Made by a program: the position numbers and the translations under genes
Notes under the pieces: model-generated
The model's database searches: none
Told to the model about the DNA's origin: nothing
Seen by the model: the letters and a program-made list of their open reading frames with translations, nothing else
Source of the DNA: Bdellovibrio sp. GT3
GTDB taxonomy: Bacteria > Bdellovibrionota > Bdellovibrionia > Bdellovibrionales > Bdellovibrionaceae
NCBI RefSeq assembly: GCF_037996765.1
Contig: NZ_JBBNAD010000004.1
Span: 682,001-746,000, forward strand
DNA length: 64,000 nucleotides
Direction of reading: 5' to 3'
Part shown: positions 31,417 to 57,225 of the stretch, piece by piece
Layout: every line of letters begins with the position of its first letter
How positions within the stretch are numbered: the stretch's first letter is position 1

Positions 31417-32229
31417 ATGAAAGCCCTAACAGACTTTACTGACTACCGTGAATTCCTTAATTACTACGTCTCTCATCCCAGCGCCCAGCGTGGTTTGCGT
31501 GCTGAAATGGCGAAAGCTATGCAGTGCCAGGCCGCTTACTTGTCGCAAGTCTTAAATGGCAACGCCGAGTTGACAGAAGACCATGCTTTCCGCTTGGTAA
31601 ATCATCTGCAATTCAATAAAGCCGACAAAGACTACTTCATGCTTCTGGTTAGAATCAGCCGGGCATCAAGTCATGAATTGAAATCTCATTTAAAAGATCA
31701 GGCAAAAGCGATCGCCAAAGCAGTCAGCAAAATTGATGATCGAGTGACTGCAAAAAAGCTCAGTGAAGACGATGCCTTCACGAAGTTCTATTTTGGCTCG
31801 TGGATTCCCAACGCCATTCACGTGGCGCTGAGCTCACCTCACTACCAAACTCCTGCGTCCTTGGCGAAACGCCTGGGGCTGCCAGAGAAAAAAGTCTTAG
31901 AGGTCTTGCAGGCTCTCGAAGAAAATCACCTGGCTGTGCGCAAGGGGAAAGGTGAGTGGAGTTACCAGGGGGCGAACTTCCATCTGCCCAAAGCTTCGCC
32001 GCTGGAAATCAATTATCAAATCCACAACCGTCTGCAAGCAATCAAAGCGTTGCAAGCCTCCAACGAACAGGATCTTCATGTATCCGCGGTTTTCACCGTG
32101 GGGGAAGAGGACTATAAAGCCTTAAGAAAAATGTTTTTGGATGCCGTCGAAAAGGCCCACAAGAAAATTGCTGCCGGTGAAAGTGAAGAGCTTTACGGGA
32201 TGAGTTTGGATCTTTTTAGAGTCGTTTAA
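31417..32229 (+). CDS. TIGR02147 / DUF4423 family regulator (copy A)
   Basis: A 270-residue cytosolic protein. The N-terminal part (DYREFLNYYVSH, MAKAMQCQAAYLSQVLNGNAELTEDHAFRLVNHL) resembles an HTH_3-like module. It is followed by a helical region and the TIGR02147 core: a winged-helix-like LAKRLGLPEKKVLEVLQALEENHLAVRKG, then an alpha/beta stretch ending YGMSLDLFRVV. The family is abundant in Bdellovibrio and Fibrobacter and is assumed to act in transcription. It lies 65 AT-rich bases after the kinase gene and converges on a secreted DUF333-like gene. Confidence 0.88.
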   Translation: MKALTDFTDYREFLNYYVSHPSAQRGLRAEMAKAMQCQAAYLSQVLNGNAELTEDHAFRLVNHLQFNKADKDYFMLLVRISRASSHELKSHLKDQAKAIAKAVSKIDDRVTAKKLSEDDAFTKFYFGSWIPNAIHVALSSPHYQTPASLAKRLGLPEKKVLEVLQALEENHLAVRKGKGEWSYQGANFHLPKASPLEINYQIHNRLQAIKALQASNEQDLHVSAVFTVGEEDYKALRKMFLDAVEKAHKKIAAGESEELYGMSLDLFRVV

Positions 32230-32231
32230 AT

Positions 32232-32268
32232 AAAAAAAATCCCCGAAGTGAGTTTCGGGGATTTTTTT
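32232..32268. terminator. Bidirectional terminator between convergent genes
   Basis: AAAAAAATCCCCGAA and TTCGGGGATTTTTTT form a long perfect stem with a six-base loop; A- and T-tracts at both ends allow use by the TIGR02147 gene (plus) and the DUF333-like gene (minus). Confidence 0.92.
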
Positions 32269-32283
32269 AAGTCTTATTTAGTT

Positions 32284-32724
32284 TTACTGCGCTTGTAAAA
32301 GAAGCTGGATCAGCAGCTCATTTCCCCGCTCTTGGGTGCCGCCATTAAGCGTGGTCACTGCGATGACGGATGAATCTGAGAATTCGCAAAGCTGAAGGGA
32401 ATAACCCTGCTCAGACTCTTTAGCCTTGGTGATTGCTCCACCTGAAGACTTACAATCAGACGAGTTTAACAAAGCATCAATGGCTTGCTGAGGAGTTTTA
32501 TTTTTAAGTGCCCAGAACAAAGTCCACTGTTCAACCAAGGCGCCATCAATTGCGCACAGAGTGGTTTGACTGGATGCCGTTGATACAGAGATCAATGTGC
32601 CGCCCAATTTATCACACAGTTTGGCTGCTGGGTTGCCCGTGCCAGCGATGACGATCGGACCGACGCCAAAGGCCTGGCTGTGAAGTGCGAGGGACGTGAC
32701 GATAAGTAAGAATGCTTTTTTCAT
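32284..32724 (-). CDS. Secreted DUF333-like protein
   Basis: 146 residues from the ATG at 32724, which has AAGGT upstream and starts a signal peptide (MKKAFLLIVTSLALHSQAFG). The stretch GNPAAKLCDKLGGTLISV...TTLCAIDGALVEQWTLFW is a recognisable DUF333 module (NPA..C...GG......G..C....G..CEEW.LF), with the Cys pair kept. The rest, with SSDCKSSGG and LQLCEF, adds two more Cys. Function unknown. It faces TIGR02147 copy A across a shared terminator. Confidence 0.74.
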   Translation of the reverse strand: MKKAFLLIVTSLALHSQAFGVGPIVIAGTGNPAAKLCDKLGGTLISVSTASSQTTLCAIDGALVEQWTLFWALKNKTPQQAIDALLNSSDCKSSGGAITKAKESEQGYSLQLCEFSDSSVIAVTTLNGGTQERGNELLIQLLLQAQ

Positions 32725-32756
32725 AAGTACCTTGTTTAGCATGTTATAAGCAAAGG

Positions 32757-32779
32757 AGGGTGCCCTGTTGAGGCACCCT
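32757..32779 (-). terminator. Hairpin downstream of the secreted-protein gene
   Basis: AGGGTGCC (32757-32764) and GGCACCCT (32772-32779) form eight pairs with a seven-base loop. It lies about 40 bases past the stop of the minus-strand gene at 32817; the minus-strand tail (CCTTTGC) is only weakly T-rich. Confidence 0.5.
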
Positions 32780-32816
32780 GGATTTCTTTTAGGACTGTCT
32801 TAGGATTAGGCAGTTA

Positions 32817-33320
32817 TTATTGCTCAACGATTTGAACACGCGCCGTACGCTTTGGTCCTAGTTGAACCCATTTGTCACACGTCGTAACCGTCGCTCCGCC
32901 GAAGTTAGTCTTACGGCACGGAATCACTTGGATCTCGTTCACGTCAGTGTCTGAGTTTTGAAAGGCAATTTCAGAAGGGAAGGTTTGAGCTTCAGAGCCA
33001 GCAACTGTTCCAGCCAAGGCAACTTCGATACGGAAGTAATCATCACTTCTTGCACCACATTTATCAATAGTCTCAGGGACCACGACAACACTGCTGCCGT
33101 TATGTTCTTGGACTTTGGGAGACATGCTAAAAGTCTTAGGTTTTCTCATGCTATCTTCCATCGAGTAGTAGGTGCATGCGAACGAATCGCTCGTCGACAC
33201 ATAAGTTGCCATTGGCACCACGCGAGCGCCTGACGGCAGAAAAACCTGAACAGCAGCAACATAGCCATAAGAGGTGGAAGCAACGAGTGAAAGTAGTACA
33301 GATGCGATAAGCGTTTTCAT
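32817..33320 (-). CDS. Secreted protein, unknown, cysteine-containing
   Basis: 167 residues. Signal peptide MKTLIASVLLSLVASTSYG, with AAGGAG before the start. The mature part is beta-rich with five Cys residues (FACTYYSM, IDKCGARSD, VIPCRKTNFGG, VTTCDKWVQ), which would be expected to form disulfides in the periplasm or outside. No family is recognised. It lies downstream of TIGR02147 copy B on the same strand, with an AT-rich 120-base gap carrying two ATATATGTTT repeats. Confidence 0.62.
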   Translation of the reverse strand: MKTLIASVLLSLVASTSYGYVAAVQVFLPSGARVVPMATYVSTSDSFACTYYSMEDSMRKPKTFSMSPKVQEHNGSSVVVVPETIDKCGARSDDYFRIEVALAGTVAGSEAQTFPSEIAFQNSDTDVNEIQVIPCRKTNFGGATVTTCDKWVQLGPKRTARVQIVEQ

Positions 33321-33441
33321 ATTGGATTCTCCTTGAGTGAATGTGTTCTTCGAGGAGGGTTATATGCCTCTTTGATGCACTATGATATATGTTTGTTATT
33401 TAAAAAATATGCTTAATATATATGTTTTATAAATATCAACC

Positions 33442-34272
33442 CTAGCACCACTCAAAAACGTCGAAGTTTAACTGATACACATTTTCGGTCTTGGCCTCGA
33501 TGACCAACGGTTCAATCTCCGATAGAAAGGTCGAAAACCTGCGACGTATCTCTGCAATTGCTTTGGCATCGGCACCGAAAGTCACCATGAAGGACCGTTT
33601 AGCGCTCTCATCTATTTTCATCAGTTGAGCTGAGCACAACGTTCGCATTAACTGTTGATGAGCGCGCATCAAGGGGTGATCCACTGAATAGTGAATATGG
33701 GGTACCTGTAGATTGGTGACAGTGAAGCTTTCGGCATCAAAATCAATATAGCCTTGAAGTTTAAGTTTATTGATCACTTCCTTCAACTTCACCTGGGAAA
33801 ACCCCAACAAATTGCAAAGCAGTTTGGGTTTTTGTGCAAACTCCGGCACCGAGAAAGCTGCCAGTGTGACAACGGAAAAAGGATCCAGTAGGTGGTGCAT
33901 GTCACTACTGATCGAATCGACACGAGAGCCCGTTTGTTTTGCAGTAATTTTATAGTCTTGCCGAATCGTTTCGATCTTCTTTTTTAAGTGATCTTTACGA
34001 AGTTTCGATGTCGAAACCTCAAAGGCTCGTAAGAAAATCAAAAACTCGATTTCCTCTTTGCTAAGTTCCAATAGGTGACCCAATTCAAAAAGATGGTCCT
34101 CGCTGAAGTGAACGCCGTCATTGTTAAAGACACGAGAAATGTAGGTATGTTGAATTCCCACTTTCTCGGCCATTCCCCGCACTGTCAGTTTACGGCTGGA
34201 GCGCGTGGAATTGAGAAAATGCAGTTTTTCCTTCAGTGCTTTCTTATAATCGGTGGCTTCAAAGATATTCAT
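33442..34272 (-). CDS. TIGR02147 / DUF4423 family regulator (copy B)
   Basis: About 276 residues from the ATG at 34272; a GTG at 34278 is also possible and neither has a clear ribosome site. The N-terminal helix-turn-helix-like part reads LTVRGMAEKVGIQHTYISRVFNNDGVHFSEDHLFELGHLL. The later winged-helix-like and alpha/beta blocks (LGFSQVKLKEVINKLKLQGYI, SFMVTFGADAKAIAEIRRRF, VYQLNFDVFEWC) match TIGR02147. It is divergent from a secreted-protein gene with repeats in the shared region, as expected for an autoregulated transcription factor. Confidence 0.86.
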   Translation of the reverse strand: MNIFEATDYKKALKEKLHFLNSTRSSRKLTVRGMAEKVGIQHTYISRVFNNDGVHFSEDHLFELGHLLELSKEEIEFLIFLRAFEVSTSKLRKDHLKKKIETIRQDYKITAKQTGSRVDSISSDMHHLLDPFSVVTLAAFSVPEFAQKPKLLCNLLGFSQVKLKEVINKLKLQGYIDFDAESFTVTNLQVPHIHYSVDHPLMRAHQQLMRTLCSAQLMKIDESAKRSFMVTFGADAKAIAEIRRRFSTFLSEIEPLVIEAKTENVYQLNFDVFEWC

Positions 34273-34304
34273 GGTCACTTTTAGTACAATAATACCTTAT
34301 TATT

Positions 34305-34336
34305 TGCACCATTATATTGCATCAAAATGCACCATT
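34305..34336. promoter_or_regulatory. Direct repeat TGCACCATT x2, candidate operator
   Basis: TGCACCATT occurs at 34305-34313 and 34328-34336, start points 23 bases apart, enclosing a GCAT-CAAA-ATGC dyad. It lies in the 131-base region between divergent TIGR02147 copy B and a secreted-protein gene, a natural place for a regulator to bind. Confidence 0.45.
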
Positions 34337-34359
34337 GCCTCCTATATTTCATTTCAAGC

Positions 34360-34381
34360 GGATGGCCACAAGGGGCCGTCC
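34360..34381 (+). promoter_or_regulatory. Leader hairpin before secreted-protein gene
   Basis: GGATGGCC (34360-34367) and GGCCGTCC (34374-34381) form eight pairs, one G-U, with a six-base loop. It ends about ten bases before the AAGGAG ribosome site, so it could steady the leader or affect translation. Confidence 0.35.
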
Positions 34382-34403
34382 CCAATTCAAAAAGGAGTTT
34401 TTT

Positions 34404-34844
34404 ATGAATCGCTTCCTATCTATGACACTGTTAGCTTCTCTTATATCTTTTCAAGCTCACGCCGCGTGCACTGACTTCGCCGGAACTTGGAAAGGCACTT
34501 GCCAAAATAACAGCGGCGTTGTCAGACACAACACAGTGACGATCATGCAAAATCGATGCGATACGATCGTTATGGAAAACCGCATTTTCCCCATTGGCCA
34601 AATCATTGAAACTCGCGTTCCTTCTAATCCAGGCGAAAGCAATGTGGCTTACGAAGTGATGAATTTCGTCAATAATTGCGCTGACCTTAAATATCTTTAC
34701 ACTTCTATTGCCTCTAAGCCGGGTCAACCACCAGTTCGTATTGACCTTGCAACCACTTACAAACGCAACGGCAACTTCATGACTTCGGAGCTTGTGCAAT
34801 CCCAGAACAATTACCGCGAAACGTGCCAATACTTTTTGCAATAG
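34404..34844 (+). CDS. Small secreted protein, unknown
   Basis: 146 residues from the ATG at 34404 (AAGGAG upstream). Signal peptide MNRFLSMTLLASLISFQAHA; mature domain begins ACTDFAGTWKGTCQNN and shows repeated beta-strand-like segments (TVTIMQNRCDTIVMEN, PVRIDLATTYKRNG). Four to five Cys (ACTDF, GTCQN, NRCDT, NNCADL, ETCQYF) suggest disulfides. The start 'FAGTWKGTC' is reminiscent of small lipocalin-like or avidin-like folds, but I cannot assign it. It is divergent from TIGR02147 copy B. Confidence 0.66.
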   Translation: MNRFLSMTLLASLISFQAHAACTDFAGTWKGTCQNNSGVVRHNTVTIMQNRCDTIVMENRIFPIGQIIETRVPSNPGESNVAYEVMNFVNNCADLKYLYTSIASKPGQPPVRIDLATTYKRNGNFMTSELVQSQNNYRETCQYFLQ

Positions 34845-34862
34845 CTTTAAAATAGCGCTAAC

Positions 34863-34922: not shown

Positions 34923-36125
34923 ATGAGTAAAGCTGTTTCTCTCCTCGCTCTTTTTACAAATTTACTGATCTCTGTAGCCGCCTTTGGCGGGCCTTGGATT
35001 TCTTCTGGTGGAGACCTGGTCGGTGACACCCGCAACCCGTGGTTTGTTATTAACTCGCCGGTTGTTAAATATTGTATCAAAATCGACGCAACAACTTTTT
35101 CAGCTTCATCAGCTTCTGTTAAAGCAGCTTTGGAAAAATCCTTGGGTTTTTGGCGCAATGAATTTCAAGAAAATGAAAACTATGCCAAGGGGAGCCTGAA
35201 CCATCTGCCTCTTTCTATTCCGCAATTTTTAGAAACTCCCTGCGACGCTCAAGTTGATTTGAAACTCGTTTTGGGTGAAGGCGCACTCAGCCCCCAAGAA
35301 GCACTTTATGTGCGATCGCGTGGTACCGAAGTTGTCGCACTGACGGTTCGCACGGACTATAATTTGGTCACTCTTAAAGGTCGCGGGTTTTTATATATCG
35401 CCGGTGACTTGAATAAACCAGAGTGGCTGGAGCAAGTTTGGAAAAACGAATCGCGCCTGACGACAGTTATCGCCCACGAAGTGGGACATATTTTGGGTAT
35501 TCCCCACCTTGGCGGTGACTTTGCGACGATGACAGGAATTCCTGAAAGTCCCGCTGCCCTGAATCTGATGGCAGAGTCCCTTCCGCAGGCCGCCGTTCTT
35601 AAAAATAAAATCGGCTATGGTTTTGTCCAGGGTATTGCACCGATCCTCAGCAACCTGAAAAGACATGAATCGTGCGAGATTTCAGCATCGACTCGTCATT
35701 GGTTGAAAATCTCTGAAACAGTTCACTGCTTGCGTGTAGAACTAAGCCCGCTCAATACCGAACAGGATATCGTCGCCAGCCTCTATGCAGTTGAAGCAGA
35801 CGGCAGTACTCACTTGCTGGGGCATTTTACCGTCGACATGCTTTCACGAACACTTTTGAATTATAAGTTTGATGTCATCACTCAGCTTGTTCTGAACAAA
35901 GAACAAAAGGTATTCGCTTTCGCTCCATCGAACTCCGTGGACTTTTTGGCGGGTGGAGTTCAACTTTTTGCTAGCATGAACTTGAAACTGACTTCAATCG
36001 ACCCAGCGGCTCCCGCGCGCTCGGTCATTTTAACGGTCAGCCCTTTGCAAATGGTGATTCTAGGAGGCACGGAATACGGGTTTACCACTTTGTTTTCGTC
36101 CAATCGCATCCGCCCTTTGTTCTAG
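34923..36125 (+). CDS. Secreted metzincin-type zinc metalloprotease
   Basis: 400 residues with a signal peptide ending near VAAF-G (start at 34923, GGAA upstream). The zinc site is HEVGHILGIPH: His185, Glu186, His189 and His195, the metzincin HExxHxxGxxH pattern. A Met (LNLMAE) about 30 residues later can serve as the Met-turn. N-terminal beta-rich sequence and a C-terminal beta domain (about 240-400) flank the catalytic centre. An exported protease fits a predatory lifestyle. It lies downstream of a secreted-protein gene and near TIGR02147 copy B. Confidence 0.85.
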   Translation: MSKAVSLLALFTNLLISVAAFGGPWISSGGDLVGDTRNPWFVINSPVVKYCIKIDATTFSASSASVKAALEKSLGFWRNEFQENENYAKGSLNHLPLSIPQFLETPCDAQVDLKLVLGEGALSPQEALYVRSRGTEVVALTVRTDYNLVTLKGRGFLYIAGDLNKPEWLEQVWKNESRLTTVIAHEVGHILGIPHLGGDFATMTGIPESPAALNLMAESLPQAAVLKNKIGYGFVQGIAPILSNLKRHESCEISASTRHWLKISETVHCLRVELSPLNTEQDIVASLYAVEADGSTHLLGHFTVDMLSRTLLNYKFDVITQLVLNKEQKVFAFAPSNSVDFLAGGVQLFASMNLKLTSIDPAAPARSVILTVSPLQMVILGGTEYGFTTLFSSNRIRPLF

Positions 36126-36853: not shown

Positions 36854-37225
36854 ATGAAATATGTGACATTTATTTTTTCAATGATGGTGGGCACACAGGT
36901 GTTTGCGGCACAGAAATCCTGCATGGCGGTCTATGCGGCTGGCTTAAGTTACTTCTTGAATGAAAGCAGTGTGCAGTTGGGTGATAAGTCCGAAATCACC
37001 TTGGGTCAAAGCACTGAAGATGAGCGCTATAAGGTGACCTTAAGCAATGAAGGCACGCTGGCTCTTATCCATGTTAAAGGAAATTTCGAACTTCCTTTGT
37101 ATCAGGTCTTTAATGATGGATCGGTGACAATCTATCAAAGCGAAGATCAGTCTTTATACCCCGAGAATGTTCCCGGTGCGAGGATTGGCAATAGTCTTAT
37201 CTTCATAGGGTGTGCTCAAGACTAA
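36854..37225 (+). CDS. Small exported protein, unknown
   Basis: 123 residues from the ATG at 36854, with a signal peptide (MKYVTFIFSMMVGTQVFAA). The mature chain is short and beta-rich with two Cys (QKSCMAVY and FIGCAQD at the ends) that could close the domain by a disulfide. No family is recognised. Its last four bases overlap the end of the convergent acetyltransferase gene. Confidence 0.6.
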   Translation: MKYVTFIFSMMVGTQVFAAQKSCMAVYAAGLSYFLNESSVQLGDKSEITLGQSTEDERYKVTLSNEGTLALIHVKGNFELPLYQVFNDGSVTIYQSEDQSLYPENVPGARIGNSLIFIGCAQD

Positions 37226-37674
37226 TAGGCTTTTTCAAAAAGAGTAAATGTGGGACGGCCTTGAATGCGTGATGGAAATTTATTTCCCGTATTGATGTAA
37301 CCACATTTTAAATAAAAACCTTCGGCCGGTGGGTCGGGGAAAACTTGAATTTTTGACCAGCCATTTTCGTTGGCAAGTTGATCGATAAACTTGCTGGTGG
37401 CAGCGCCAATTCCTTGCTTTAGAGTCGATTTTTTAATCCATAGATTTTCCAGAAAAACTTCATCTTCTCTTTTCTCAAATGAAAGAAAGCCCACCAGTTC
37501 GGGATTTCTGATCTCATAGCAAATTTCAGAGTTTAGTGTTTTCTCGTCCATCGTAATTAAATGCAAAGATGCTTTGGCGTATTCTTCCGGGTAATTCCAA
37601 ACAGAGCGTGATCCCTCGATCAAAGCATTTATATCTGACAAGTTGGTGAGCTGAGCTTTTTTAAATTCGATCAT
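37222..37674 (-). CDS. GNAT-family N-acetyltransferase
   Basis: A 150-residue acetyltransferase from the ATG at 37674. GNAT features are visible: an N-terminal helix (AQLTNLSDINALIEGS), a central strand VFLENLWIKKS, the acetyl-CoA-binding QGIGAATSKFIDQL (Q/R-x-x-G-x-G/A type), and FPDPPAEGFYLKCGYINTG near the C-terminus. The acceptor cannot be told. It stands alone, convergent with a small exported protein gene. Confidence 0.88.
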   Translation of the reverse strand: MIEFKKAQLTNLSDINALIEGSRSVWNYPEEYAKASLHLITMDEKTLNSEICYEIRNPELVGFLSFEKREDEVFLENLWIKKSTLKQGIGAATSKFIDQLANENGWSKIQVFPDPPAEGFYLKCGYINTGNKFPSRIQGRPTFTLFEKAY

Positions 37675-37753
37675 GCTGTTTTTAATGACTTTAAAAGCAG
37701 TGCCTTTCAATCAAAACCGTTCGGTTCTGCGGTGCGGCCCAGAAAGGGAACTG

Positions 37754-38800
37754 TTACCTGTAAGTTCTTGTGATTCGTTCGATCAGCTTTTTATTGGCGT
37801 CGCGAACGGATGTGGGCTTCTGGTGCCAGCTGGCCAGAATGTCTTCACGCAACAGATTGTAGACTTTTATCAGATAGTCGCGCTTCTCCTGGGCATCGTA
37901 TCCCTTGATCCAGTGATGCGTATAAAGCTCGCTGCGAACCGGAGAAAACATGTAATGCGGAGTCGAGTCATTCCAATGGTCATGTGCGTGGTGGGTCGTG
38001 AAATCGCGGGCAGCGGCCTTGTAGGCTTCTTTGTCGGAGCTGCAGGGGAACTCTACGGCTTTACGCATAGCTTGTGGATCTTCGGCAAAAAGCACGGCCA
38101 CCACATCGGCAAAGAGTTCGTGGTAAGGGGCGAGTAAATTCAGGATGCGATTTTGTTCGGCGGAAAACTCGCCCGTTTCAAAATAGGCCTGGGCCAGCTG
38201 CCGTTCTATTTCCTGCTTCTTTTCCAAAAGATGCTTTAGGTGGGACGGGGTGGGGGCTGCGATAATGCGCTTTTCAATCAAAGCGCGTTGATTCGCCAGG
38301 AAGTAGACCTTTTGGTTTGCGATCATAGGTGAGGCGATGCCCTCACGGATGGATTTGAATTCGGGAATATCACGGGTCAGCCAGTCGGTAAAAATCACGT
38401 GACCATATTCGTGGGCAAAGGTCGTTAGATTGCCAGCTTCACTGCGCAGATGTTTTTCCTTACCATCGGAGTCTTCAATATACAGGAATTCTGCAGCCGA
38501 AAGCACAGCTACACCATCATAAGAGGCGCCACTGGCGGAATGCTTTAATGACAATACGACTTTCTCAGAGACGGGGGCCCATACGGAAATCGACTCGACA
38601 ACGGCGGCCAGCTTCTGCGCAAACTTGCAGGAAGAAACAGTCAGGTCATTGCTGTCTTGCCATAAATTCACAGAGGAAAAGGAAGGAACCTCGGGGCATT
38701 GATTCGCCATAAAGTCCGATTCAATACTTTGCGTCCAAGCCTGTGCTGACACTAAGAAGGCTAAGAATGGGATAAGGAATTTAAGGGTGGATGAACGCAC
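37754..38800 (-). CDS. Exported HExxH zinc metallopeptidase-like protein
   Basis: 348 residues with a signal peptide (RSSTLKFLIPFLAFLVSAQA). The zinc motif is FAHEYGHVIF with His130, Glu131 and His134; YHELFADVVAVLFAED about 90 residues later offers a third ligand Glu, the gluzincin arrangement. The C-terminal part (about 260-345) contains HDHW and SPVRSELYTHHW. No exact family is recognised. It is monocistronic and exported, adding to the window's set of envelope proteases. Confidence 0.75.
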   Translation of the reverse strand: MRSSTLKFLIPFLAFLVSAQAWTQSIESDFMANQCPEVPSFSSVNLWQDSNDLTVSSCKFAQKLAAVVESISVWAPVSEKVVLSLKHSASGASYDGVAVLSAAEFLYIEDSDGKEKHLRSEAGNLTTFAHEYGHVIFTDWLTRDIPEFKSIREGIASPMIANQKVYFLANQRALIEKRIIAAPTPSHLKHLLEKKQEIERQLAQAYFETGEFSAEQNRILNLLAPYHELFADVVAVLFAEDPQAMRKAVEFPCSSDKEAYKAAARDFTTHHAHDHWNDSTPHYMFSPVRSELYTHHWIKGYDAQEKRDYLIKVYNLLREDILASWHQKPTSVRDANKKLIERITRTYR

Positions 38801-38905
38801 AAGTGACCTCGATAGGGGACAATGTAGCAGTTGTTAAAATTTGGTTTGTTTTAAACTGTTAATATTGAAAGAAAGTCACGGCTGTCTATGGGGTCGACAT
38901 AGGTG

Positions 38906-39208
38906 TCAGGTCCTATTTAAGGGGGAGGATGGATCACATTTTTGATGACCACACATATTGAGTTCGCTACCTGTTTGTCCAAATCCTAGCTTCTTCGTAT
39001 CAACTTGAGATATGATCCAGATTACAATTGTATAAGGTTCTTGGGATCGATCATTATGGTCAGCTGGGAATCGGTCGTCTAATGCTCTGGCCGTCTCCCG
39101 TGGCGTTTGACTGATTAAAACAACCAGGAACCCATGGGACAACAAAAACAAGTGGACGATCAATGCTTCGTTCAGTACTCGCACGAAGCTGGCAAATGAA
39201 ATCAACAC
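38906..39208 (-). CDS. Doubtful membrane ORF lacking an ATG start
   Basis: A 100-residue frame with TTG as first available start and no good ribosome site. Reading upstream in the same frame gives KKIRGFAFLIVLISFASF, so the full hydrophobic segment begins before any start codon. The rest has a second hydrophobic stretch (ALIVHLFLLSHGFLVVLIS) and an Asp/Arg/Gln-rich tail. It could be a degraded gene, a gene with a non-standard start, or chance. No family is recognised. Confidence 0.25.
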   Translation of the reverse strand: MLISFASFVRVLNEALIVHLFLLSHGFLVVLISQTPRETARALDDRFPADHNDRSQEPYTIVIWIISQVDTKKLGFGQTGSELNMCGHQKCDPSSPLNRT

Positions 39209-39253
39209 TATAAGAAATGCAAAACCTCTAATTTTCTTAAAAGTCTCCTACGT

Positions 39254-39287
39254 AAAGCTGGTCGTCCCAGAGAGAACGACCAGCTTT
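39254..39287. terminator. Hairpin after small secreted-protein gene
   Basis: AAAGCTGGTCGT and ACGACCAGCTTT form a perfect 12-pair stem with a ten-base loop. It lies just past the stop of the minus-strand gene at 39294. The T-tract on that strand is short (TTTACG), so it may also serve as an RNA-protecting 3' end. Confidence 0.6.
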
Positions 39288-39293
39288 TAAACT

Positions 39294-39605
39294 CTATTCG
39301 CTAATAACTGTAGAGCTATTTAAACGAACCGTACATGAGGCATCGTGAATAACTGCAGGTTCACCATGAGGTGTTAAATATTCTGCGAAACATTTTACAT
39401 TATCTTTCGCTTTTATTAGTCTTCTGCCATCCACATATTCAATATCGCTATTCAACGCATTGAAAAGATCAATGGCAGATTTTCCTTCAATAACGACCAA
39501 TTTAGCCTCAACGATATATTTAGAAGTGCCTTCCACTTGTGTGGTAGCGAAACTGACACTTGAAAACATAGTGACTAGAGATAGCGATAAAATAGTTCTG
39601 ATCAT
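39294..39605 (-). CDS. Small secreted protein, unknown (cluster member 1)
   Basis: 103 residues, signal peptide MIRTILSLSLVTMFSSVSFA. The mature part is beta-rich with two Cys (VKCFAEYL and DASCTVRL), likely a disulfide. GGAGT-type ribosome site upstream. No family recognised. It is the last of four consecutive minus-strand genes for small exported proteins, each with its own short intergenic leader. Confidence 0.65.
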   Translation of the reverse strand: MIRTILSLSLVTMFSSVSFATTQVEGTSKYIVEAKLVVIEGKSAIDLFNALNSDIEYVDGRRLIKAKDNVKCFAEYLTPHGEPAVIHDASCTVRLNSSTVISE

Positions 39606-39657
39606 ATAAATTACTCCTTTGTTTTTAATATAAAAATTTAAAAAAATCGGACCACGA

Positions 39658-39957
39658 CTACTGGCAAGCGGCGATGTTTTCGACCTTGTAGCCGACGATC
39701 ACATCGTTGGAAAGCACGTACGTCAAGCCCACGATTGTTTGGCAGCTGTCTGATGTGATTTGAACGTCAAGATTGTCGTCGCCACCAACTTCCACCTTTT
39801 TAACAGCCTCTCCATTGATAGCAGAAATGACGCTCGCGTCAGTAAGTGCCGCATGGATCTTTCTTAGAGAGTCATTATAGCTAGAAAGACGAGAACCTGC
39901 AAAAGCGGAAGAAGCTGCCAGAGTTGTGAATAAAGAAGCTAAAATCATTTTTTTCAT
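39658..39957 (-). CDS. Small secreted protein, unknown (cluster member 2)
   Basis: 99 residues. Signal peptide MKKMILASLFTTLAASSAFA, then a compact acidic domain with two Cys (SDSCQTIVG and the penultimate Cys). AAGGAAT lies upstream of the start. No family is recognised; length and single-disulfide layout resemble cluster member 1. It lies 52 bases upstream of member 1 on the same strand. Confidence 0.66.
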   Translation of the reverse strand: MKKMILASLFTTLAASSAFAGSRLSSYNDSLRKIHAALTDASVISAINGEAVKKVEVGGDDNLDVQITSDSCQTIVGLTYVLSNDVIVGYKVENIAACQ

Positions 39958-39996
39958 AAAAATTCCTTTGTTTAAATAATTCGTTTTTCTATTCTA

Positions 39997-40383
39997 CTAT
40001 TTGCACGTGTATCTAGCCCAAACGCCCGGAGCATAGGTTTGGTCCAATGCCACAGTTGAATTTGGGTGAATGTCCGCGAAACCTTGGTTGGTGGAGAACC
40101 ACTGAACATTGTTATATGCCTGGCATCCTTGGTTGGCTTTGCTGTACGTGAAATCTGCACCGTAGTGACCATCACTGCCCATCCACTTCACTGCACCAAT
40201 ACATGTGCCAGTTGCGCCGGCACCCTTGATGGCGATCTGGTTGCCGTTGAATTGAACCAGGATTTCTGCATCCGCTTGGACCGCATCACCAACATTTTTC
40301 AGGTTGCAGATATAATATGGTTTTGCCGCGAAGGCTGTAGAACTAAGACCCAACATTAAAAGTGCACAGAATACTTGTTTCAT
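39997..40383 (-). CDS. Small secreted protein, unknown (cluster member 3)
   Basis: 128 residues with signal peptide MKQVFCALLMLGLSSTAFA. The mature chain has four Cys (YYICNLKN, GTCIGAVKW, NQGCQAYNN and RYTCK at the end) and many Gly and aromatic residues, typical of a small disulfide-bonded exported domain. AGGAG precedes the start. No family recognised. It lies 39 bases upstream of cluster member 2. Confidence 0.66.
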   Translation of the reverse strand: MKQVFCALLMLGLSSTAFAAKPYYICNLKNVGDAVQADAEILVQFNGNQIAIKGAGATGTCIGAVKWMGSDGHYGADFTYSKANQGCQAYNNVQWFSTNQGFADIHPNSTVALDQTYAPGVWARYTCK

Positions 40384-40590
40384 CGAATACTCCTATTTTT
40401 TGGTTACTTTTGTTATTGCTAACTTCAAATGCAATATACCCTCGGAAATTGACCAAAAAAAGATAGATGTTCTTAATTAGTATACGGTTTGTTCATATTT
40501 AGTGTACAACTGTCTGATCTTTGTACGGCCGCCGCCGCGATATGAATATACTTGATGGGGCCCGTGTCGGGGCATCCAAAGGTGCAAGGC

Positions 40591-40618
40591 AAAAAAAAAG
40601 GCAGGAAACTATCCTGCC
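40591..40618 (-). terminator. Terminator after DUF3011 gene
   Basis: On the minus strand GGCAGGA and TCCTGCC form seven pairs with a five-base loop, then nine T residues. It lies about 24 bases past the stop of the DUF3011 gene. Confidence 0.88.
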
Positions 40619-40641
40619 TCATTTTTAAATGCATCAGATTT

Positions 40642-40977
40642 TTATCTTTTGATTTCGAAAGTTGCTCTGCAACCTTTATCTACCCAAATTACGCTTCCTT
40701 TGAATCCGAAGCTTTTGTTTGCAACACATTCAGAGCGAGAGTTTTTACTGTATAGTCTAATAGATCGTACTCCGCGGCCATTAACCCAACACTCATTATA
40801 TTTGTTATCTTCTGAATCGCAGTCCATGTACTCCACTTCAGGCTCATCGATTTGGTCATCACAGCCGCGACGATCCATACCTGCGGGTCGGTAGTCTTCG
40901 TTATAATAACCAGCTTGTGCCTGAGCAATTTGTGTAAACGCCATAACAGATACCAGTGCGATTAAAATTCTATTCAT
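40642..40977 (-). CDS. Secreted DUF3011-domain protein (cluster member 4)
   Basis: 111 residues from the ATG at 40977; the longer frame upstream adds no sensible sequence. Signal peptide MNRILIALVSVMAFTQIAQA, then a Tyr/Asp-rich linker and a DUF3011-like domain: YNECWVNGRGVRSIRLYSKNSRSECVANKSFGFKGSVIWVDKGCRATFEI. The Cys spacing and the WVDKGCRATF ending are diagnostic. The domain is found in exported proteins of unknown binding function. It has its own terminator, so it is a separate unit from members 1-3. Confidence 0.8.
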   Translation of the reverse strand: MNRILIALVSVMAFTQIAQAQAGYYNEDYRPAGMDRRGCDDQIDEPEVEYMDCDSEDNKYNECWVNGRGVRSIRLYSKNSRSECVANKSFGFKGSVIWVDKGCRATFEIKR

Positions 40978-41106
40978 TGTTTTCCCCCGTGGTTTAAAAT
41001 TGCCACCAATTAAGCGGCAATAGGAGGTATTGCAGACGTCATGCCACGCAACCAGACGACAATTTGGCACCACAGTGCGGCCCGTGCGAGCATAATGACA
41101 GGGCAT

Positions 41107-41135
41107 AAAAAAAGCCGACTCGAAAGTCAGCTTTT
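41107..41135 (-). terminator. Terminator after tRNA-Leu
   Basis: On the minus strand AAAAGCTGACT and AGTCGGCTTT form about ten pairs with a TTCG tetraloop, followed by a T-run. It lies just past the tRNA-Leu CCA end. Confidence 0.88.
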
Positions 41136-41140
41136 TAAAT

Positions 41141-41223
41141 TGGTGCGCGGAGAGGGACTTGAACCCTCACGCTTGCGCATACGCCCCTCAAACGTACGTG
41201 TCTACCAATTCCACCATCCGCGC
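41141..41223 (-). tRNA. tRNA-Leu (GAG)
   Basis: The minus strand folds as a complete class II tRNA: acceptor GCGCGGA/TCCGCGC with discriminator A and encoded CCA, D-arm GGTGGAATTGGTAGAC, anticodon stem TACGT/GCGTA with loop TTGAGGG (anticodon GAG, reading CUC and CUU Leu codons), a long variable arm (TGCGCAAGCGT) and a canonical GGTTCAAGTCC T-arm. A terminator follows directly. 83 bases long. Confidence 0.95.
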
Positions 41224-41308
41224 GCACCGAGGATCAAGTTAACCTTGGGCTGTTGAGTCCGTCAATGATGCGCGATGCGCAAAAGATAGGTCGATAGCGC
41301 AGGTCTTT

Positions 41309-41842
41309 TTATTTCACCGAATAAACTACATCCACACAGGTGTCGCCGCGCTGATTGATTTGCTTGATCTTAAACGCAGTCTCCGTTCGGCGGGAGAAGA
41401 GCTTTTTGCCCTCGTTTAAGAACACTGCCACCGTTTGAATCTGCATCTCATCTACCAGGCCCTGGTCATGGAACAGTCCCACCAGTTCGCCACCGCCAAC
41501 CAGCCATACGTTTTTACCATTGGCCAGTCGGACTAACTCCTTGTGGAGAGGTCCCACATCACCCTGAACGAAGCGAATGTCTGCTCCTTCAACGGGGTTC
41601 AGTTTTCGATGAGTAAAAACCAGGCAGGGGATTTGGTACGGCCAAGGCTCATTATTTTTACTATTATAGTTCAGGAGCCACTCATAGGTTGCAGCCCCCA
41701 TTGCCAGAGCACCAATGCCGTCCATGAAGCTTTTGATGAAACTTAAATCAGAAGGGCCGTTTTTAAACAGCCACTCCAGGGAATCATTTTTATCGGCAAT
41801 GTATCCATCCAGGCTCGCGGCAGCAAAATAGATTGTTTTCAT
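41309..41842 (-). CDS. Dihydrofolate reductase / RibD C-terminal-like protein
   Basis: A 177-residue cytosolic protein of the RibD_C/DHFR-like superfamily. Motifs: IYFAAASLDGYIADKNDSLEWL at the start, IGALAMGAATYEWL, CLVFTHRKL, NVWLVGGGELVGLFHDQGLVDEMQIQTVAVFLNEGKKLF, including the Gly-rich NADPH-binding turn. Members are often annotated YyaP/YwjB-like reductases of unknown substrate; it is too short and too divergent to be called FolA. Monocistronic. Confidence 0.88.
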   Translation of the reverse strand: MKTIYFAAASLDGYIADKNDSLEWLFKNGPSDLSFIKSFMDGIGALAMGAATYEWLLNYNSKNNEPWPYQIPCLVFTHRKLNPVEGADIRFVQGDVGPLHKELVRLANGKNVWLVGGGELVGLFHDQGLVDEMQIQTVAVFLNEGKKLFSRRTETAFKIKQINQRGDTCVDVVYSVK

Positions 41843-41877
41843 TTATCTAGGATGGAATTGAATCGGACTTCAGTCAA

Positions 41878-42300
41878 TTAAGGTCGTTTGCCTTTGCTGG
41901 CTGCCGGGACTCTTTCGGCCAGGCCTTCCAGTTTCTTTCGTTGCTCCGGGCTCCAGGTTTTTAAAAAGCCTTCCGGATCTTTTTGCGCTTGTTTAATGAC
42001 TTGCTCCAGTTGCTCTGAAGTCAGTCCCTTCATATTGCCTAAAACATCCGCTGCAAGATTGTAAAGTTCTTGCTCGTTGGCAGAGTTTCCAGTGATGGAT
42101 TTAACATGCTCAGAAACCTTGCTGGCTTCTTTGGAGCTGTTGACCATGCTTTGGCGGCTTTGTGCATTTCTTAGATCCTGCTGCGTTTTTTCAATCGCAC
42201 TGATCGTATCCTCTTCGTCGCTTGCAAAAGCGTAAGCACTGCAAAACAAGGATGCTATAACGATGACCACAGCGATTGATTTACTGATAATCCCCAACAT
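41878..42300 (-). CDS. Exported helical protein, unknown
   Basis: 140 residues with a signal peptide (SIAVVIVIASLFCSAYAFA). The mature part is almost entirely charged and helical (TISAIEKTQQDLRNAQSRQS, LTSEQLEQVIKQAQKDPEGFLKTWSPEQRKKLEGL), suggesting a coiled coil or helical bundle, and lacks Cys. No family is recognised. It lies downstream of the second subtilase gene on the same strand, 94 bases away. Confidence 0.62.
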   Translation of the reverse strand: MLGIISKSIAVVIVIASLFCSAYAFASDEEDTISAIEKTQQDLRNAQSRQSMVNSSKEASKVSEHVKSITGNSANEQELYNLAADVLGNMKGLTSEQLEQVIKQAQKDPEGFLKTWSPEQRKKLEGLAERVPAASKGKRP

Positions 42301-42394
42301 ACTGAAACTTTCTCCTGGATTTGCAATAGGATAAAGGGGCGCGGGTTGGGGGAAAAGTTAAATGTAAGACACGTCTCAAGATGAGATCGCGAAT

Positions 42395-43825: not shown

Positions 43826-43890
43826 TAGGTTATAGCTATGCGATTCCCGGGCCATGAGAGTGGGCTTTCAGATCTGGTATAAGCGAGTTG

Positions 43891-51915: not shown

Positions 51916-53298
51916 CTATTTTTTCAATGAATCCTTGTAGCGATTGACCGCCATGATGCCTTTGCGCGAGTTATCGATGGAATCCCCGAAGATGCGCGCA
52001 CTCTCCTGAGGGGCATGGAAGCCCGTGGAGTTTTCAGCTTCCACAAAGTCAAACATGAACTGCGCATGGCGCTGGAAGTTTCGGGCCGCTTCCAGGTCCT
52101 TGTTCGGATTTTTTACCAGGTCGACATCTTTATACGGTTTCAAGGCATTGATAAGATCAATTAAGGCATCGAAGGCGGTGTCACGCAATTTGTGATGACG
52201 ATCCTGAATAGTTGTTGCGCGATCGAAGAGTTCTTTTTCAGAAACATTGTGGCACGTCTGGCAGGCGCGGTTGATATTCAAGAGGGGGCTGCGCACCCAG
52301 TGGTCGGTGACTTTCATGGCTCCGACTCTTTGGTACGGCATGTGGCAATCGGTACATGCCACACCAGCGCGGGCATGGGTTCCCTGCGAGAACAGTTCAA
52401 ATTCGGGATGCTGCGCTTTCAGGACATTGGCGCCCGTGTCCTTATGAATCCAGTCCTTGAATTTGATTTCGTCATAATAGGCCAGCATGTTTTCAACTTT
52501 GATGCCCTTGGCCCATGGGTAAGTCAGCGTCTTGCCGTCACCTTTGAAGTAGTACTCCACGTGACATTGGGCGCAGACGTAAGTGCGCATTTCCTGGCGC
52601 GATGCCATTTTGTTCACATCATACTCGGTGATGCCCTGAGTGGCCTTGAAGGCTTTGATCCCTTCGATAAATGCCGGGCGTGTGACTCGCAGGGACATAT
52701 CTTTGGCATCATGACAGTCGATGCAGGAGACTGGATGCTTGGCCATTTGGACGACTTCTTTATAGGGGATTTTGTTCATTTCATGGAACCCCTTGGTTAG
52801 ATCACCGTCGCCCAATTTTTTGTAAAGCAAATAAGTGGAGGCATGGCAATTCAGGCAAGCGCCGGGTTGTTTCACCACTTCCTGGCGTTCAGTCAACTCT
52901 TGATCCAGTAACATATATGCGTGCCCGCGCTCTTCGCGGAAGTCTTTTGAAAAGGCATATCCATTCCACATGATGCGAAGTCTTGGATCTTGATCCAACT
53001 TTTGTACCGAGGTGACTGTGCGCGGATCTTTGCTGGTTGGTACGTGGGGGAAGGCTTCCGAGCCGCCATACTTGGTGCGGGTCATATCGGAGGATTTTAA
53101 ATACGACTCGTATTGATAGGGAAAGTTTTTTCCCCAGATCGCGGGATCTTCAATTTCATCCGTGATTTCGACAACACGGTAGAAGGCTTGTTTTCCCTCT
53201 TGTTTGCGTTCGAAGATATTGACCAGAAGTGCCGCCGCAGCAACAGTCAGGACAATGGCTCCAGCCAGGATAATAAGATTTCGTTTCATGGGCGTCAT
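51916..53298 (-). CDS. nrfA: Pentaheme cytochrome c nitrite reductase
   Basis: 460 residues; AGGAGA before the ATG at 53298. Ammonia-forming nitrite reductase, periplasmic. Five heme sites: CLNCH (148-152), CIDCH (192-196), CAQCH (242-246), CTDCH (315-319), CQTCH (346-350). The first, which by order is the catalytic heme, has CxxCH, not the CxxCK of E. coli NrfA; CxxCH forms are known in some bacteria. The active-site blocks CAQCHVEYYF and QHPEFELFSQGTHARAGVACTDCHMP are kept. An uncleaved or cleaved N-terminal signal helix is present. Downstream of nrfH in one operon. Confidence 0.95.
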   Translation of the reverse strand: MTPMKRNLIILAGAIVLTVAAAALLVNIFERKQEGKQAFYRVVEITDEIEDPAIWGKNFPYQYESYLKSSDMTRTKYGGSEAFPHVPTSKDPRTVTSVQKLDQDPRLRIMWNGYAFSKDFREERGHAYMLLDQELTERQEVVKQPGACLNCHASTYLLYKKLGDGDLTKGFHEMNKIPYKEVVQMAKHPVSCIDCHDAKDMSLRVTRPAFIEGIKAFKATQGITEYDVNKMASRQEMRTYVCAQCHVEYYFKGDGKTLTYPWAKGIKVENMLAYYDEIKFKDWIHKDTGANVLKAQHPEFELFSQGTHARAGVACTDCHMPYQRVGAMKVTDHWVRSPLLNINRACQTCHNVSEKELFDRATTIQDRHHKLRDTAFDALIDLINALKPYKDVDLVKNPNKDLEAARNFQRHAQFMFDFVEAENSTGFHAPQESARIFGDSIDNSRKGIMAVNRYKDSLKK

Positions 53299-53307
53299 GG
53301 ATGTCTC

Positions 53308-53772
53308 CTATTGTCCGTGACCCACACCGCGGTGGCAGTGCAGGCAATTCTTAACGTCGTCTTCAGTGCCCTTGTGCGCACCAATGTCCATGGCTTGAAC
53401 CATGGGTTGGTGGCAGTTCAGGCAACTCTGTAGCGCAACCTTGCGATTAAGATCCTTGATTTGAATCGGCTCGTGAAAGTTCTGAAAAGTAAATGCCCAA
53501 CCGTGATTAAAACCGTTCAATGCTTTAACCGCGTATTTAGCTGCGATGTTCCCGTGGGGTAAGTGGCAGTCATTACATTTTGCCACGTACTGATGGCCTG
53601 ATTTGCTCCAGGAATCGTAGTTCGCCTGCATGATATGGCAGTTGATACAGGCCTTGGGATCGTCAGAGAGGTAGGAGTAACCCTTGGCGTAAATAAAGGA
53701 ATAAGCACCCAGTCCAATCAGTATACCGATTAGAATGATGACAACTATTCCGGGCGCATTTTTCAGGTTCAT
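53308..53772 (-). CDS. nrfH: Tetraheme quinol dehydrogenase subunit NrfH
   Basis: A 154-residue NapC/NirT-family cytochrome that passes electrons from menaquinol to NrfA. One N-terminal membrane anchor (GIVVIILIGILIGLGAYSFI) and four CxxCH heme sites: CINCH (42-46), CNDCH (66-70), CLNCH (117-121), CLHCH (143-147). The HIMQANYDSW segment carries the Met/His region of NrfH. It precedes nrfA by nine bases in the usual nrfHA order. No FNR site was found upstream. Confidence 0.95.
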   Translation of the reverse strand: MNLKNAPGIVVIILIGILIGLGAYSFIYAKGYSYLSDDPKACINCHIMQANYDSWSKSGHQYVAKCNDCHLPHGNIAAKYAVKALNGFNHGWAFTFQNFHEPIQIKDLNRKVALQSCLNCHQPMVQAMDIGAHKGTEDDVKNCLHCHRGVGHGQ

Positions 53773-53989: not shown

Positions 53990-54018
53990 TGAATGTCAGA
54001 CACCTAAAGGGGAATCCA

Positions 54019-54786: not shown

Positions 54787-54794
54787 TCTTCAGG

Positions 54795-54844
54795 TGGGGC
54801 CCTATTGAATCTGACGCAACGCTAAGCGTTAGTTGCGAGCCCCA
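54795..54844 (+). promoter_or_regulatory. Nested inverted repeats before carbonic anhydrase gene
   Basis: Outer arms TGGGGC (54795-54800) and GCCCCA (54839-54844) enclose CGCAAC (54815-54820) / GTTGCG (54832-54837), and inside these AACGCT-A-AGCGTT (54818-54830) offers a competing fold. There is no T-tract. It sits between the lipoprotein stop and the carbonic anhydrase start. Confidence 0.5.
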
Positions 54845-54881
54845 AATTGTACATTCGCTTCTTAGGGATTAAGCATGTCCC

Positions 54882-55556: not shown

Positions 55557-55627
55557 TAATGATTTTTGGACGCCTTGGAGAACGTGAGGAACGGTGATTC
55601 CAAGGCAGATAAGTACCCATCAAGATA

Positions 55628-55656
55628 TTGACATCAAGCTCCAACCTCTAGATATT
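55628..55656 (+). promoter_or_regulatory. Sigma70-type promoter before TIGR02147 copy C
   Basis: TTGACA (55628-55633, 6 of 6) and GATATT (55651-55656, 4 of 6) with 17 bases between. Transcription would start near 55663, giving a leader of about 125 bases to the ATG at 55789 that includes a perfect dyad. Confidence 0.6.
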
Positions 55657-55702
55657 CCACCACATTCCATGAGTGCTTATACGAGAACGCTTTTTAATTT
55701 GC

Positions 55703-55717
55703 GACTCCATTGGAGTC
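55703..55717. promoter_or_regulatory. Dyad GACTCCA-T-TGGAGTC
   Basis: Seven-base perfect arms around one base, downstream of the TTGACA promoter and upstream of the TIGR02147 copy C gene. The one-base centre favours a protein-binding operator over an RNA hairpin. A further CCTTGGA/TCCAAGG pair lies at about 55573-55605. Confidence 0.45.
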
Positions 55718-55788
55718 AGAGCACCACGGCAAGGGCATTGCGCCGATTACTTTTGTGAAATAGTTTTTCCGCCATGGGGAATACGTCT

Positions 55789-56541
55789 ATGAAAAAAACA
55801 TCCGAGTTATCGAATTTTTTTAATGAGATTTTTTTGGCGCGCCGTCGGAAAAATCCCAAGTACTCAATGCGTGCGTTCGCACGTGATCTTTCACTGACTC
55901 AAGGTCGTTTGTGGGAATTGATTCATGGTCGCTATATTCCAGGATCAAAAGTAACTGAGCGTATTGCGGAGTTACTGAAGTTGGCGCCGGAAGACAAAGA
56001 GCGCATGCAGTCTTTGATTGCCATTGCCAAAGCACAACCGGTCTCCACGCTGCGTTCGATTTCCAAAGATGAATTCGCGATTATCTCTGATTGGGAGCAC
56101 ATGGCGATCTTCAATTTGATTTCGACCAAAGGTTTCGATCACACGATCAACAGCATCGTGAGTCGTCTGGAGATCTCCATGTTGCAGGCTGAGGGGGCTT
56201 TAAGTCGTCTGGTTGAAGCCGGCCTGGTTGTTGATGATGGCGGCAAATTCCTCCCGGCATTCACCAATGTCAGTGCGCCCACAGAGGTGCCTTCAGAAGT
56301 GATGCGTGAGTTTCATCGCCAGATGATTGGTCGCTCGGTAACATCCCTGCATCGCGATCCGGTTGAATCTCGCAGTATTACCAGTATGGTTTTTCCTGCG
56401 AACGTTAAGAATCTGGCGAAGGCCAAAAAAATCATTCTCGATTTCAATGTTCGTATGGCAGAGCTTATGGATAAAGGTGACACAACGGAAGTGTACAGCC
56501 TGGCAGTTCAATTGGTGCCAGTCACAGTAGCAGGAAGGTAG
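55789..56541 (+). CDS. TIGR02147 / DUF4423 family regulator (copy C)
   Basis: About 250 residues from the ATG at 55789 (GGGGA eight bases upstream); an in-frame ATG at 55774 has no ribosome site. N-terminal HTH-like part: YSMRAFARDLSLTQGRLWELIHGRYIPGSKVTERIAELL. The winged-helix-like and alpha/beta blocks (RLEISMLQAEGALSRLVEAGLVVDD, ITSMVFPANVKNLAKAKKIILDF, EVYSLAVQLVPV) fit TIGR02147. Six bases separate it from a secreted-protein gene, so regulator and exported protein form an operon. Confidence 0.87.
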   Translation: MKKTSELSNFFNEIFLARRRKNPKYSMRAFARDLSLTQGRLWELIHGRYIPGSKVTERIAELLKLAPEDKERMQSLIAIAKAQPVSTLRSISKDEFAIISDWEHMAIFNLISTKGFDHTINSIVSRLEISMLQAEGALSRLVEAGLVVDDGGKFLPAFTNVSAPTEVPSEVMREFHRQMIGRSVTSLHRDPVESRSITSMVFPANVKNLAKAKKIILDFNVRMAELMDKGDTTEVYSLAVQLVPVTVAGR

Positions 56542-56547
56542 GAAGAG

Positions 56548-57225
56548 ATGAATAACTTAATGAAGAGTATTTTGCTTGCGGGTTTGTTGGTATTTCCAGC
56601 GATGGGTCATGCTTGGACATTTGTGGGTAACGCCGGGAACGTGGTTATTTGCAAAGGTCAGGTGGTTGGTTTCTATGATCGCTTTGAATTGGATTTGCGT
56701 TACAACTGGACGTGGGATCTGGCACAAATTGAATTTCCAAACACGACAGGCACTCCGGATGAAGTCATTTTGGCTCAAGCCTATTTGCAAAGAATTGAAA
56801 AGCTTCACCCGATGTTGTTTGCAACATTGAAAGGCTACGTGGATTCCTTCTATAGCGAAGTGAATTTCGTAAAAGGCTATCTGCCAAATGTTCTGGACGA
56901 TGCTGGTGTGGTGGTTTTGCCGGGCAAGCATTGCAATCTGGAGCTTTTGGTTGTGCAGAAGCCGATTCAGTATCCTAAAAAGTCCCTGTACACGGTGAAT
57001 CAGTTCTATTGGAAGTCATTGAACTCCCAGGACCGTGCCGTGGCAATCCTGCATGAAGTGATCTACCGTGTGGCTTTGACTCGTGGTAAGGCGCCTCGCT
57101 CGTCTGAAGGCATTCGTCTTTTGAACGAAGTGATTCTGTCCAACGAAGTGAAGAGCATGTCAGTGGTGGAGTTTGCTAATCTGACCCGATTGGTGTTTAC
57201 ACCCCAATCCAGTGATCAAAAGTAA
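56548..57225 (+). CDS. Secreted protein with HExIYR motif
   Basis: 225 residues; signal peptide ending near MGHA-W, GGAAGAG ribosome site. The mature chain has conserved-looking VVICKGQVVGFYDRFE at the start and a C-terminal AVAILHEVIYRVALTRGKAPRSSEGIRLLNEVILS. HEVIYR resembles, but does not match, HExxH (the last His is replaced), so zinc-protease activity is doubtful. From memory, similar 'LHExIYR' exported proteins recur in Bdellovibrio genomes. It is co-transcribed with TIGR02147 copy C and ends in a strong terminator. Confidence 0.74.
   Translation: MNNLMKSILLAGLLVFPAMGHAWTFVGNAGNVVICKGQVVGFYDRFELDLRYNWTWDLAQIEFPNTTGTPDEVILAQAYLQRIEKLHPMLFATLKGYVDSFYSEVNFVKGYLPNVLDDAGVVVLPGKHCNLELLVVQKPIQYPKKSLYTVNQFYWKSLNSQDRAVAILHEVIYRVALTRGKAPRSSEGIRLLNEVILSNEVKSMSVVEFANLTRLVFTPQSSDQK

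What the first reader, a model, noticed from the sequence alone, without database searches (positions are those of the whole stretch)
31417..57225. Three TIGR02147 regulators each sit beside exported-protein genes
Copy A faces a secreted DUF333-like gene. Copy B is divergent from a secreted gene and near a metzincin and another secreted gene. Copy C is in an operon with a secreted HExIYR protein. The repeated pairing in one 26 kb stretch suggests regulators that control particular exported effectors, perhaps at stages of predation, and fits a system not yet described.
Basis: partly seen in the sequence, partly recalled or inferred. Interest (0 to 1): 0.6.

Follow-up and report, generated by a model that had tools for sequence, protein, structure and literature searches.

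The report
Regulator genes paired with exported-protein genes
A large, unstudied family of gene regulators in Bdellovibrio-type bacteria is inherited together with genes for exported, possibly metal-enzyme-like proteins, often as overlapping two-gene units, so each regulator probably switches its own exported product; one of the three copies in this window is a clear case.

Summary
The three DUF4423/TIGR02147-type regulators and their exported neighbours are real. As stated, the pattern proves little: 19 of 31 genes in the span are predicted exported, three of 28 copies within 25 kb is expected by chance (P about 0.33), and genome-wide 24/28 copies have an exported neighbour against 52% of cytoplasmic controls but 12/20 LysR/TetR genes. 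What is decisive is homology. Copy C (55789-56541) and the exported protein behind it (56548-57225) belong to a conserved two-gene module. Its partner has a GNGG motif after the signal peptide and an invariant His-Glu pair, and no Pfam family. In other genomes, 63 of 63 checked partner loci lie beside a TIGR02147 gene; 52 directly follow one, 21 by the exact 4-base overlap. The module reaches Bacteriovorax and about half of 291 sampled genomes of the phylum. Regulator and partner distances co-vary. A perfect palindrome before copy C occurs once in the genome and keeps both arms in every genome with a close orthologue. Copies A and B keep exported partners (DUF333; matrixin-like metzincin) in orthologues, in changing orientations. 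Most likely these are dedicated local regulators of single exported proteins. Control by predation stage is untested and unsupported.

The parts
55628..55656 (+). Promoter-like site TTGACA-17-GATATT of module C
   Evidence: Consensus scan, no more than chance by number; the TAGATATTCCAC block is kept in three close orthologues.
55703..55717 (.). Perfect palindrome GACTCCATTGGAGTC; candidate private operator of regulator C (or a 5'-UTR hairpin)
   Evidence: Single occurrence in the genome; both 7-bp arms kept in all six genomes with the C orthologue, spacer 1 or 10 bp.
55789..56541 (+). Copy C: regulator with XRE-like HTH plus DUF4423/TIGR02147 (alternative start 55774)
   Evidence: TIGR02147 81.0 bits, PF14394 131 bits; model shows N-terminal helices then a winged-helix domain.
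56548..57225 (+). Exported partner of C: signal peptide, GNAG/GNGG motif, invariant C35, D44, E47, C129, W155, H169-E170, S186, R190
   Evidence: Alignment A4; 37/37 family-2 loci in other genomes lie beside TIGR02147 genes.
57232..57258 (.). Bidirectional terminator-like hairpin that closes module C
   Evidence: 12-pair stem with A/T runs on both sides.
31417..32229 (+). Copy A: TIGR02147/DUF4423 regulator
   Evidence: 68.9 bits; orthologues at 82% and 65% in two genomes.
32284..32742 (-). Exported DUF333 protein, convergent with A
   Evidence: PF03891 43 bits; homologue beside A in G010 (convergent) and G009 (divergent).
32817..33320 (-). Small exported protein between A and B, no family
   Evidence: not kept beside B in G010.
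33442..34272 (-). Copy B: divergent DUF4423 regulator, below the TIGR02147 cut-off
   Evidence: PF14394 41.6 bits; TIGR02147 42.9 of 50; 95% orthologue in G010.
34404..34844 (+). Small exported protein, divergent from B
   Evidence: 73% homologue in the same place beside B in G010.
34923..36125 (+). Exported matrixin-like metzincin (HEVGHILGIPH)
   Evidence: PF00413 matches 9/10 family members; TIGR02147 gene within the 1.5-kb flanks at 7 of 11 homologous places.

Best explanation
TIGR02147/DUF4423 proteins in Bdellovibrionota act as dedicated local transcription regulators, each paired with one or two genes for exported proteins. In the commonest form (copy C) the regulator gene comes first and the partner gene starts within a few bases of its stop codon, so both are probably co-transcribed and often translationally coupled. 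The regulator probably binds a private operator in front of its own operon and so sets the level of its own partner. The partner is secreted and probably has a zincin-like fold keeping only the His-Glu pair of the HExxH site. Copies B and A pair with a true metzincin and with a DUF333 protein. Shown: the families, signal peptides by heuristic, gene order, phylum-wide linkage, co-divergence, and the conserved palindrome before C. Inferred: DNA binding to that palindrome, autoregulation, the zincin fold, and action of the partner outside the cell.
For: Linkage: all 63 non-redundant partner loci outside this genome (26 family 1, 37 family 2) have a TIGR02147-type gene in the flanks; 52 are regulator-then-partner operons, 21 with the exact -4 overlap, and 6 are divergent. 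With about 25 regulator genes in 3.6 Mb, chance linkage within such flanks is a few per cent per locus (inference). The same overlapping pair is in Bacteriovorax sp. BSW11_IV, another class of the phylum. 144 of 291 phylum genomes hold family 2. Families 1 and 2 are homologous (hhalign 96%, E 1.4e-9; one member hits both profiles). Regulator and partner distances correlate: r 0.62, P 0.007 for seven paralogous pairs of this genome; r 0.75, 0 of 5000 permutations for 34 pairs. Palindrome before C: one site in 3.58 Mb, both arms kept in six of six genomes with the orthologue. Regulator model: HTH plus MarR/ArsR-like winged helix, weak matches. Zincin hint: VIA rows mostly zincins, best Z 4.1; PF18894 PhageMetallopep weakly in 6 of 24 members. 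A and B orthologues keep their exported partners.
Against: No DNA-binding or expression data. Inverted repeats are not enriched before TIGR02147 genes in general (P 0.36), so private operators are shown for one lineage only. The spacer change 1 to 10 bp in the palindrome suits an RNA hairpin as well as a protein operator. One family-2 partner in this genome (C1:81525-82193) has no regulator within about 7 kb. Four of 11 metzincin places lack a regulator in their flanks. The zincin match is weak (Z below 5, model pLDDT 64, no Foldseek hit at E 0.001), and profile comparison did not link the partner to the metzincin. For A, convergence with a terminator-like hairpin between the genes argues against simple co-transcription.
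Confidence: 0.68

Rival explanations
1. Neighbourhood by chance: exported genes are so common in this genome that any regulator sits beside one.
For: 37% of control genes are predicted exported and 19/31 in the span; LysR/TetR genes have an exported neighbour in 12/20 cases, divergent exported in 6/20 against 13/28 for TIGR02147 (P 0.2).
Against: Cannot give 63/63 linkage of two homologous partner families in other genomes, co-divergence, or the overlap geometry. It remains possible for some copies (e.g. 14, 19, 24, 25) and in part for A.
Confidence: 0.1
2. Feedback sensing: the exported partner is part of the signal path, for example a periplasmic (pseudo)protease that makes a peptide or senses the wall, and the cytoplasmic regulator reads the result.
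For: Strict one-to-one pairing and co-divergence fit a matched sensor and regulator as well as a regulator and its target. Copy B's HTH weakly resembles the phage peptide-receptor AimR (E 0.0023).
Against: No membrane or peptide-binding TPR domain is seen in the regulator; the AimR match covers only the HTH and is far below its cut-off (17 of 70 bits).
Confidence: 0.15
3. A selfish or antitoxin-like two-gene unit, with the HTH protein first and an overlapping toxic gene second.
For: Gene order and 4-base overlap resemble toxin-antitoxin operons; copy A weakly matches HigA antitoxin (23.1 of 47.7 bits).
Against: The second protein is exported; regulators of 250-290 aa with two DNA-binding domains are unlike antitoxins; partners also occur divergent and with an intervening gene.
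Confidence: 0.05

Closest known systems
TIGR02147 (Fsuc_second) / DUF4423 (PF14394) protein family
   Same: Copies A and C exceed the curated scores of both models; B exceeds Pfam's only. 28 members in this genome, the largest of the regulator families counted (LysR 13, TetR 7).
   Different: The family is defined as a paralogous family without function; its link to exported partners is not part of any description found.
MarR/ArsR winged-helix and XRE regulators beside their targets
   Same: Two DNA-binding-type domains predicted, genes next to or overlapping the presumed target, a palindrome before the operon.
   Different: Each has an HTH plus a DUF4423 winged helix; one partner family of exported proteins recurs across a phylum and dozens of divergent paralogues.
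Aspzincin (M35) and other zincin metallopeptidases
   Same: The partner model's best structural rows are zincins, 1g12 and AsaP1 (Z 4.1); invariant HE in a helix after a beta-hairpin.
   Different: No HExxH: the pattern is HExIYR in family 2 and HExLG...D..Y..S in family 1; no Pfam peptidase match above cut-off.
Matrixin-like metzincins (PF00413)
   Same: The exported protein next to copy B has HEVGHILGIPH, and 9 of 10 family members match Matrixin.
   Different: Linked to a DUF4423 regulator at 7 of 11 places; not detectably homologous to the HE partners.

Membership tests
TIGR02147 / DUF4423 regulators | Score above the curated cut-offs | tested here: met
   A 68.9 and C 81.0 of 50 bits; B 42.9, below TIGR02147, but 41.6 of 30 for PF14394.
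TIGR02147 / DUF4423 regulators | N-terminal HTH plus C-terminal winged helix | tested here: inconclusive
   Model of C shows both, at pLDDT 66 with no Foldseek match at E 0.001.
Autoregulating DNA-binding regulator | Binds an operator before its own operon | not testable with these tools
   Only a conserved palindrome before C.
Zincin metallopeptidase (HE partner) | Complete HExxH zinc site | tested here: not met
   HExIY in nearly all family-2 and HExLG/HExLP in nearly all family-1 members; one outlying partner has HEFGHH.
Zincin metallopeptidase (HE partner) | Zincin fold | tested here: inconclusive
   Z 4.1 to 1g12 and AsaP1 from a low-confidence model.
Metzincin (34923-36125) | HExxHxxGxxH motif and Met-turn family profile | tested here: met
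   HEVGHILGIPH; PF00413 in 9/10 members, best E 3e-7, the window protein itself 21.4 of 24 bits.
RRNPP/AimR peptide-sensing regulators | Family score above cut-off | tested here: not met
   Copy B 17 of 70 bits to AimR, HTH only.
Toxin-antitoxin (HigA) | Antitoxin profile above cut-off | tested here: not met
   Copy A 23.1 of 47.7 bits.

The most novel reading that the evidence does not exclude
Bdellovibrionota carry a phylum-wide, lineage-variable repertoire of regulator-effector cassettes in which each DUF4423 regulator controls, through a private operator, one secreted zincin-derived protein; the repertoire tunes which secreted proteins a predator deploys on its prey.
Probability: 0.3. Interest if true: 0.8.

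Novelty: new variant of a known kind. Interest (0 to 1): 0.6.

Why it matters
How predatory bacteria control their many secreted proteins is largely unknown beyond a FliA-driven attack programme (PMC3627812). A family with 2 to about 48 matches per genome in related species, physically tied to exported proteins of a new family, gives dozens of testable regulator-target pairs and a name-worthy exported protein family without a Pfam entry. It also suggests a function for the orphan families TIGR02147 and DUF4423.

Tried and rejected
Plain neighbour statistics as proof: too weak against LysR/TetR controls. Clustering of three copies as remarkable: chance P 0.33, and another triple exists in the genome. 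General enrichment of inverted repeats before TIGR02147 genes: none. FliA-like attack-phase promoters: 11 sites at two mismatches against 12 expected. Viral copies of module C: none. Solved relatives by sequence: none meaningful. Foldseek on the partner model: nothing at E 0.001. Homology of the HE partners with the metzincin: not shown. Profile A4 and A2 were too divergent for back-translated scans.

Full report
Setting. The window is G000:C4:682001-746000 of a 3.58-Mb, six-contig genome. The nearest named record with the C module is a Bdellovibrio MAG, with the same MFS and ileS genes downstream, so the genome is Bdellovibrio-like.

Check of the three cases. All three regulators and their exported neighbours are present. 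B falls below the TIGR02147 cut-off but is a DUF4423 protein. A is convergent with its DUF333 neighbour, with a terminator-like hairpin between (sequence). C is 6 bp before its partner.

Is the pattern more than chance? The genome has about 28 copies, against 13 LysR and 7 TetR genes. I called genes in 1.1 Mb (58 stretches) with a hexamer model and a signal-peptide heuristic. TIGR02147 genes had an exported neighbour in 24/28 cases against 144/278 cytoplasmic controls (P 3e-4), and on both sides in 13/28 against 26/278 (P 3e-6). Against LysR/TetR genes the difference is small: 24/28 and 12/20, P 0.046; divergent exported 13/28 and 6/20, P 0.2. In the span itself 19 of 31 genes are predicted exported, and three copies within 25 kb has P 0.33. 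The three local cases alone prove little.

The homologous partner. Listing neighbours showed that many copies are followed by homologous exported proteins with GNGG after the signal peptide and an invariant His-Glu. A profile of seven (family 1) was then used on 24 relatives: 26 non-redundant loci in other genomes, all beside a TIGR02147 gene, 21 as regulator-then-partner operons and 5 divergent. The partner of copy C defines family 2; 37 loci in other genomes are all linked, 31 as regulator-then-partner operons. 21 of 52 operons have the exact 4-base overlap. These tests are not circular, since the regulators played no part in finding the loci. The two families are homologous. Family 2 occurs in 144 of 291 genomes of the phylum and, as an overlapping pair, in Bacteriovorax. 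An orphan family-2 gene exists in this genome.

Co-inheritance. Regulator and partner distances correlate among seven paralogous pairs of this genome (r 0.62, P 0.007) and among 34 pairs (r 0.75). With the eleven most divergent pairs of this genome together the correlation is not significant (r 0.18, P 0.18). In the regulator tree the HE-partner label is clustered (5 changes against 8.3 in shuffles, 6 of 500 as low), and copies with and without HE partners are interspersed, so partners have been swapped at times.

Copies A and B. Orthologues of A at 82% and 65% keep a DUF333-type exported gene beside them, convergent in one and divergent in the other. The B orthologue at 95% keeps both the small exported gene and the metzincin; distant B relatives in two other families of the order overlap the metzincin gene. 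Metzincin homologues have a TIGR02147 gene in their flanks at 7 of 11 places. So A and B are real pairs too, on fewer genomes.

Operator candidate. Before C lies GACTCCATTGGAGTC at 55703-55717. It occurs once in the genome, and once at the same place in G011, G029 and G030; G010 and G027 keep both arms with a 10-bp spacer. The arms are 14/14 identical in the four orthologues compared, where the rest of the leader is 58-69% identical. It lies downstream of a promoter-like site, so it may be an operator or a leader hairpin. Such repeats are not enriched before the other copies.

Structure. The partner model is of modest quality (pLDDT 64, three sequences). Its best aligned rows are mostly zincins, with aspzincins first at Z 4.1, below the level that proves a fold. 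The regulator model has an HTH-like N-terminal helical domain and a winged helix.

Literature. In the held library one paper mentions DUF4423: Bd3700 of B. bacteriovorus, listed as raised 2.67 during growth in prey (PMC12546842). No paper mentions TIGR02147. The known attack-phase regulator is FliA (PMC3627812); its sites are not above chance here.

Verdict.

Noticed in passing
window 29651-31351; L022 (C1:70575-72071): A Ser/Thr kinase gene lies 65 bp before copy A, and a near-paralogue of it (start MKTPKRIGPYQIIHRIAEGGMAEVHLGKSESRFGVSKL) is divergent from the tandem regulator copies 19 and 14; a kinase-regulator link may exist.
   Followed up: no
L017, L018, L019 (regulator copies 8, 9, 20): A second recurring neighbour: small exported proteins of about 140-150 aa that are homologous to each other (52% between copies 8 and 20), mostly divergent from the regulator.
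   Followed up: partly
window 39997-40383; L023 (C5:1501350-1501745): The exported protein at 39997 has a close-looking paralogue directly divergent from regulator copy 17, far away in the genome.
   Followed up: no
window 36854-43855: A dense run of small exported-protein genes with a subtilase-like protein at 42395-43855 and an HEYGH metalloprotease-like protein at 37754-38800.
   Followed up: no
G000:C1:81525-82193 (L192): Orphan family-2 HE partner with no TIGR02147 gene within about 7 kb, at the end of a run of very large exported fibre-like proteins that starts behind regulator copies 19 and 14.
   Followed up: partly
window 34273-34403: The intergenic stretch between B and its divergent exported gene holds repeated TGGTGCA elements and an AATAATAAGGTATTATT inverted repeat, mostly kept in the G010 orthologue.
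   Followed up: partly
window 51916-53772: Two adjacent exported multihaem cytochrome genes that look like nitrite reductase NrfA and NrfH (by eye from CxxCH motifs).
   Followed up: no
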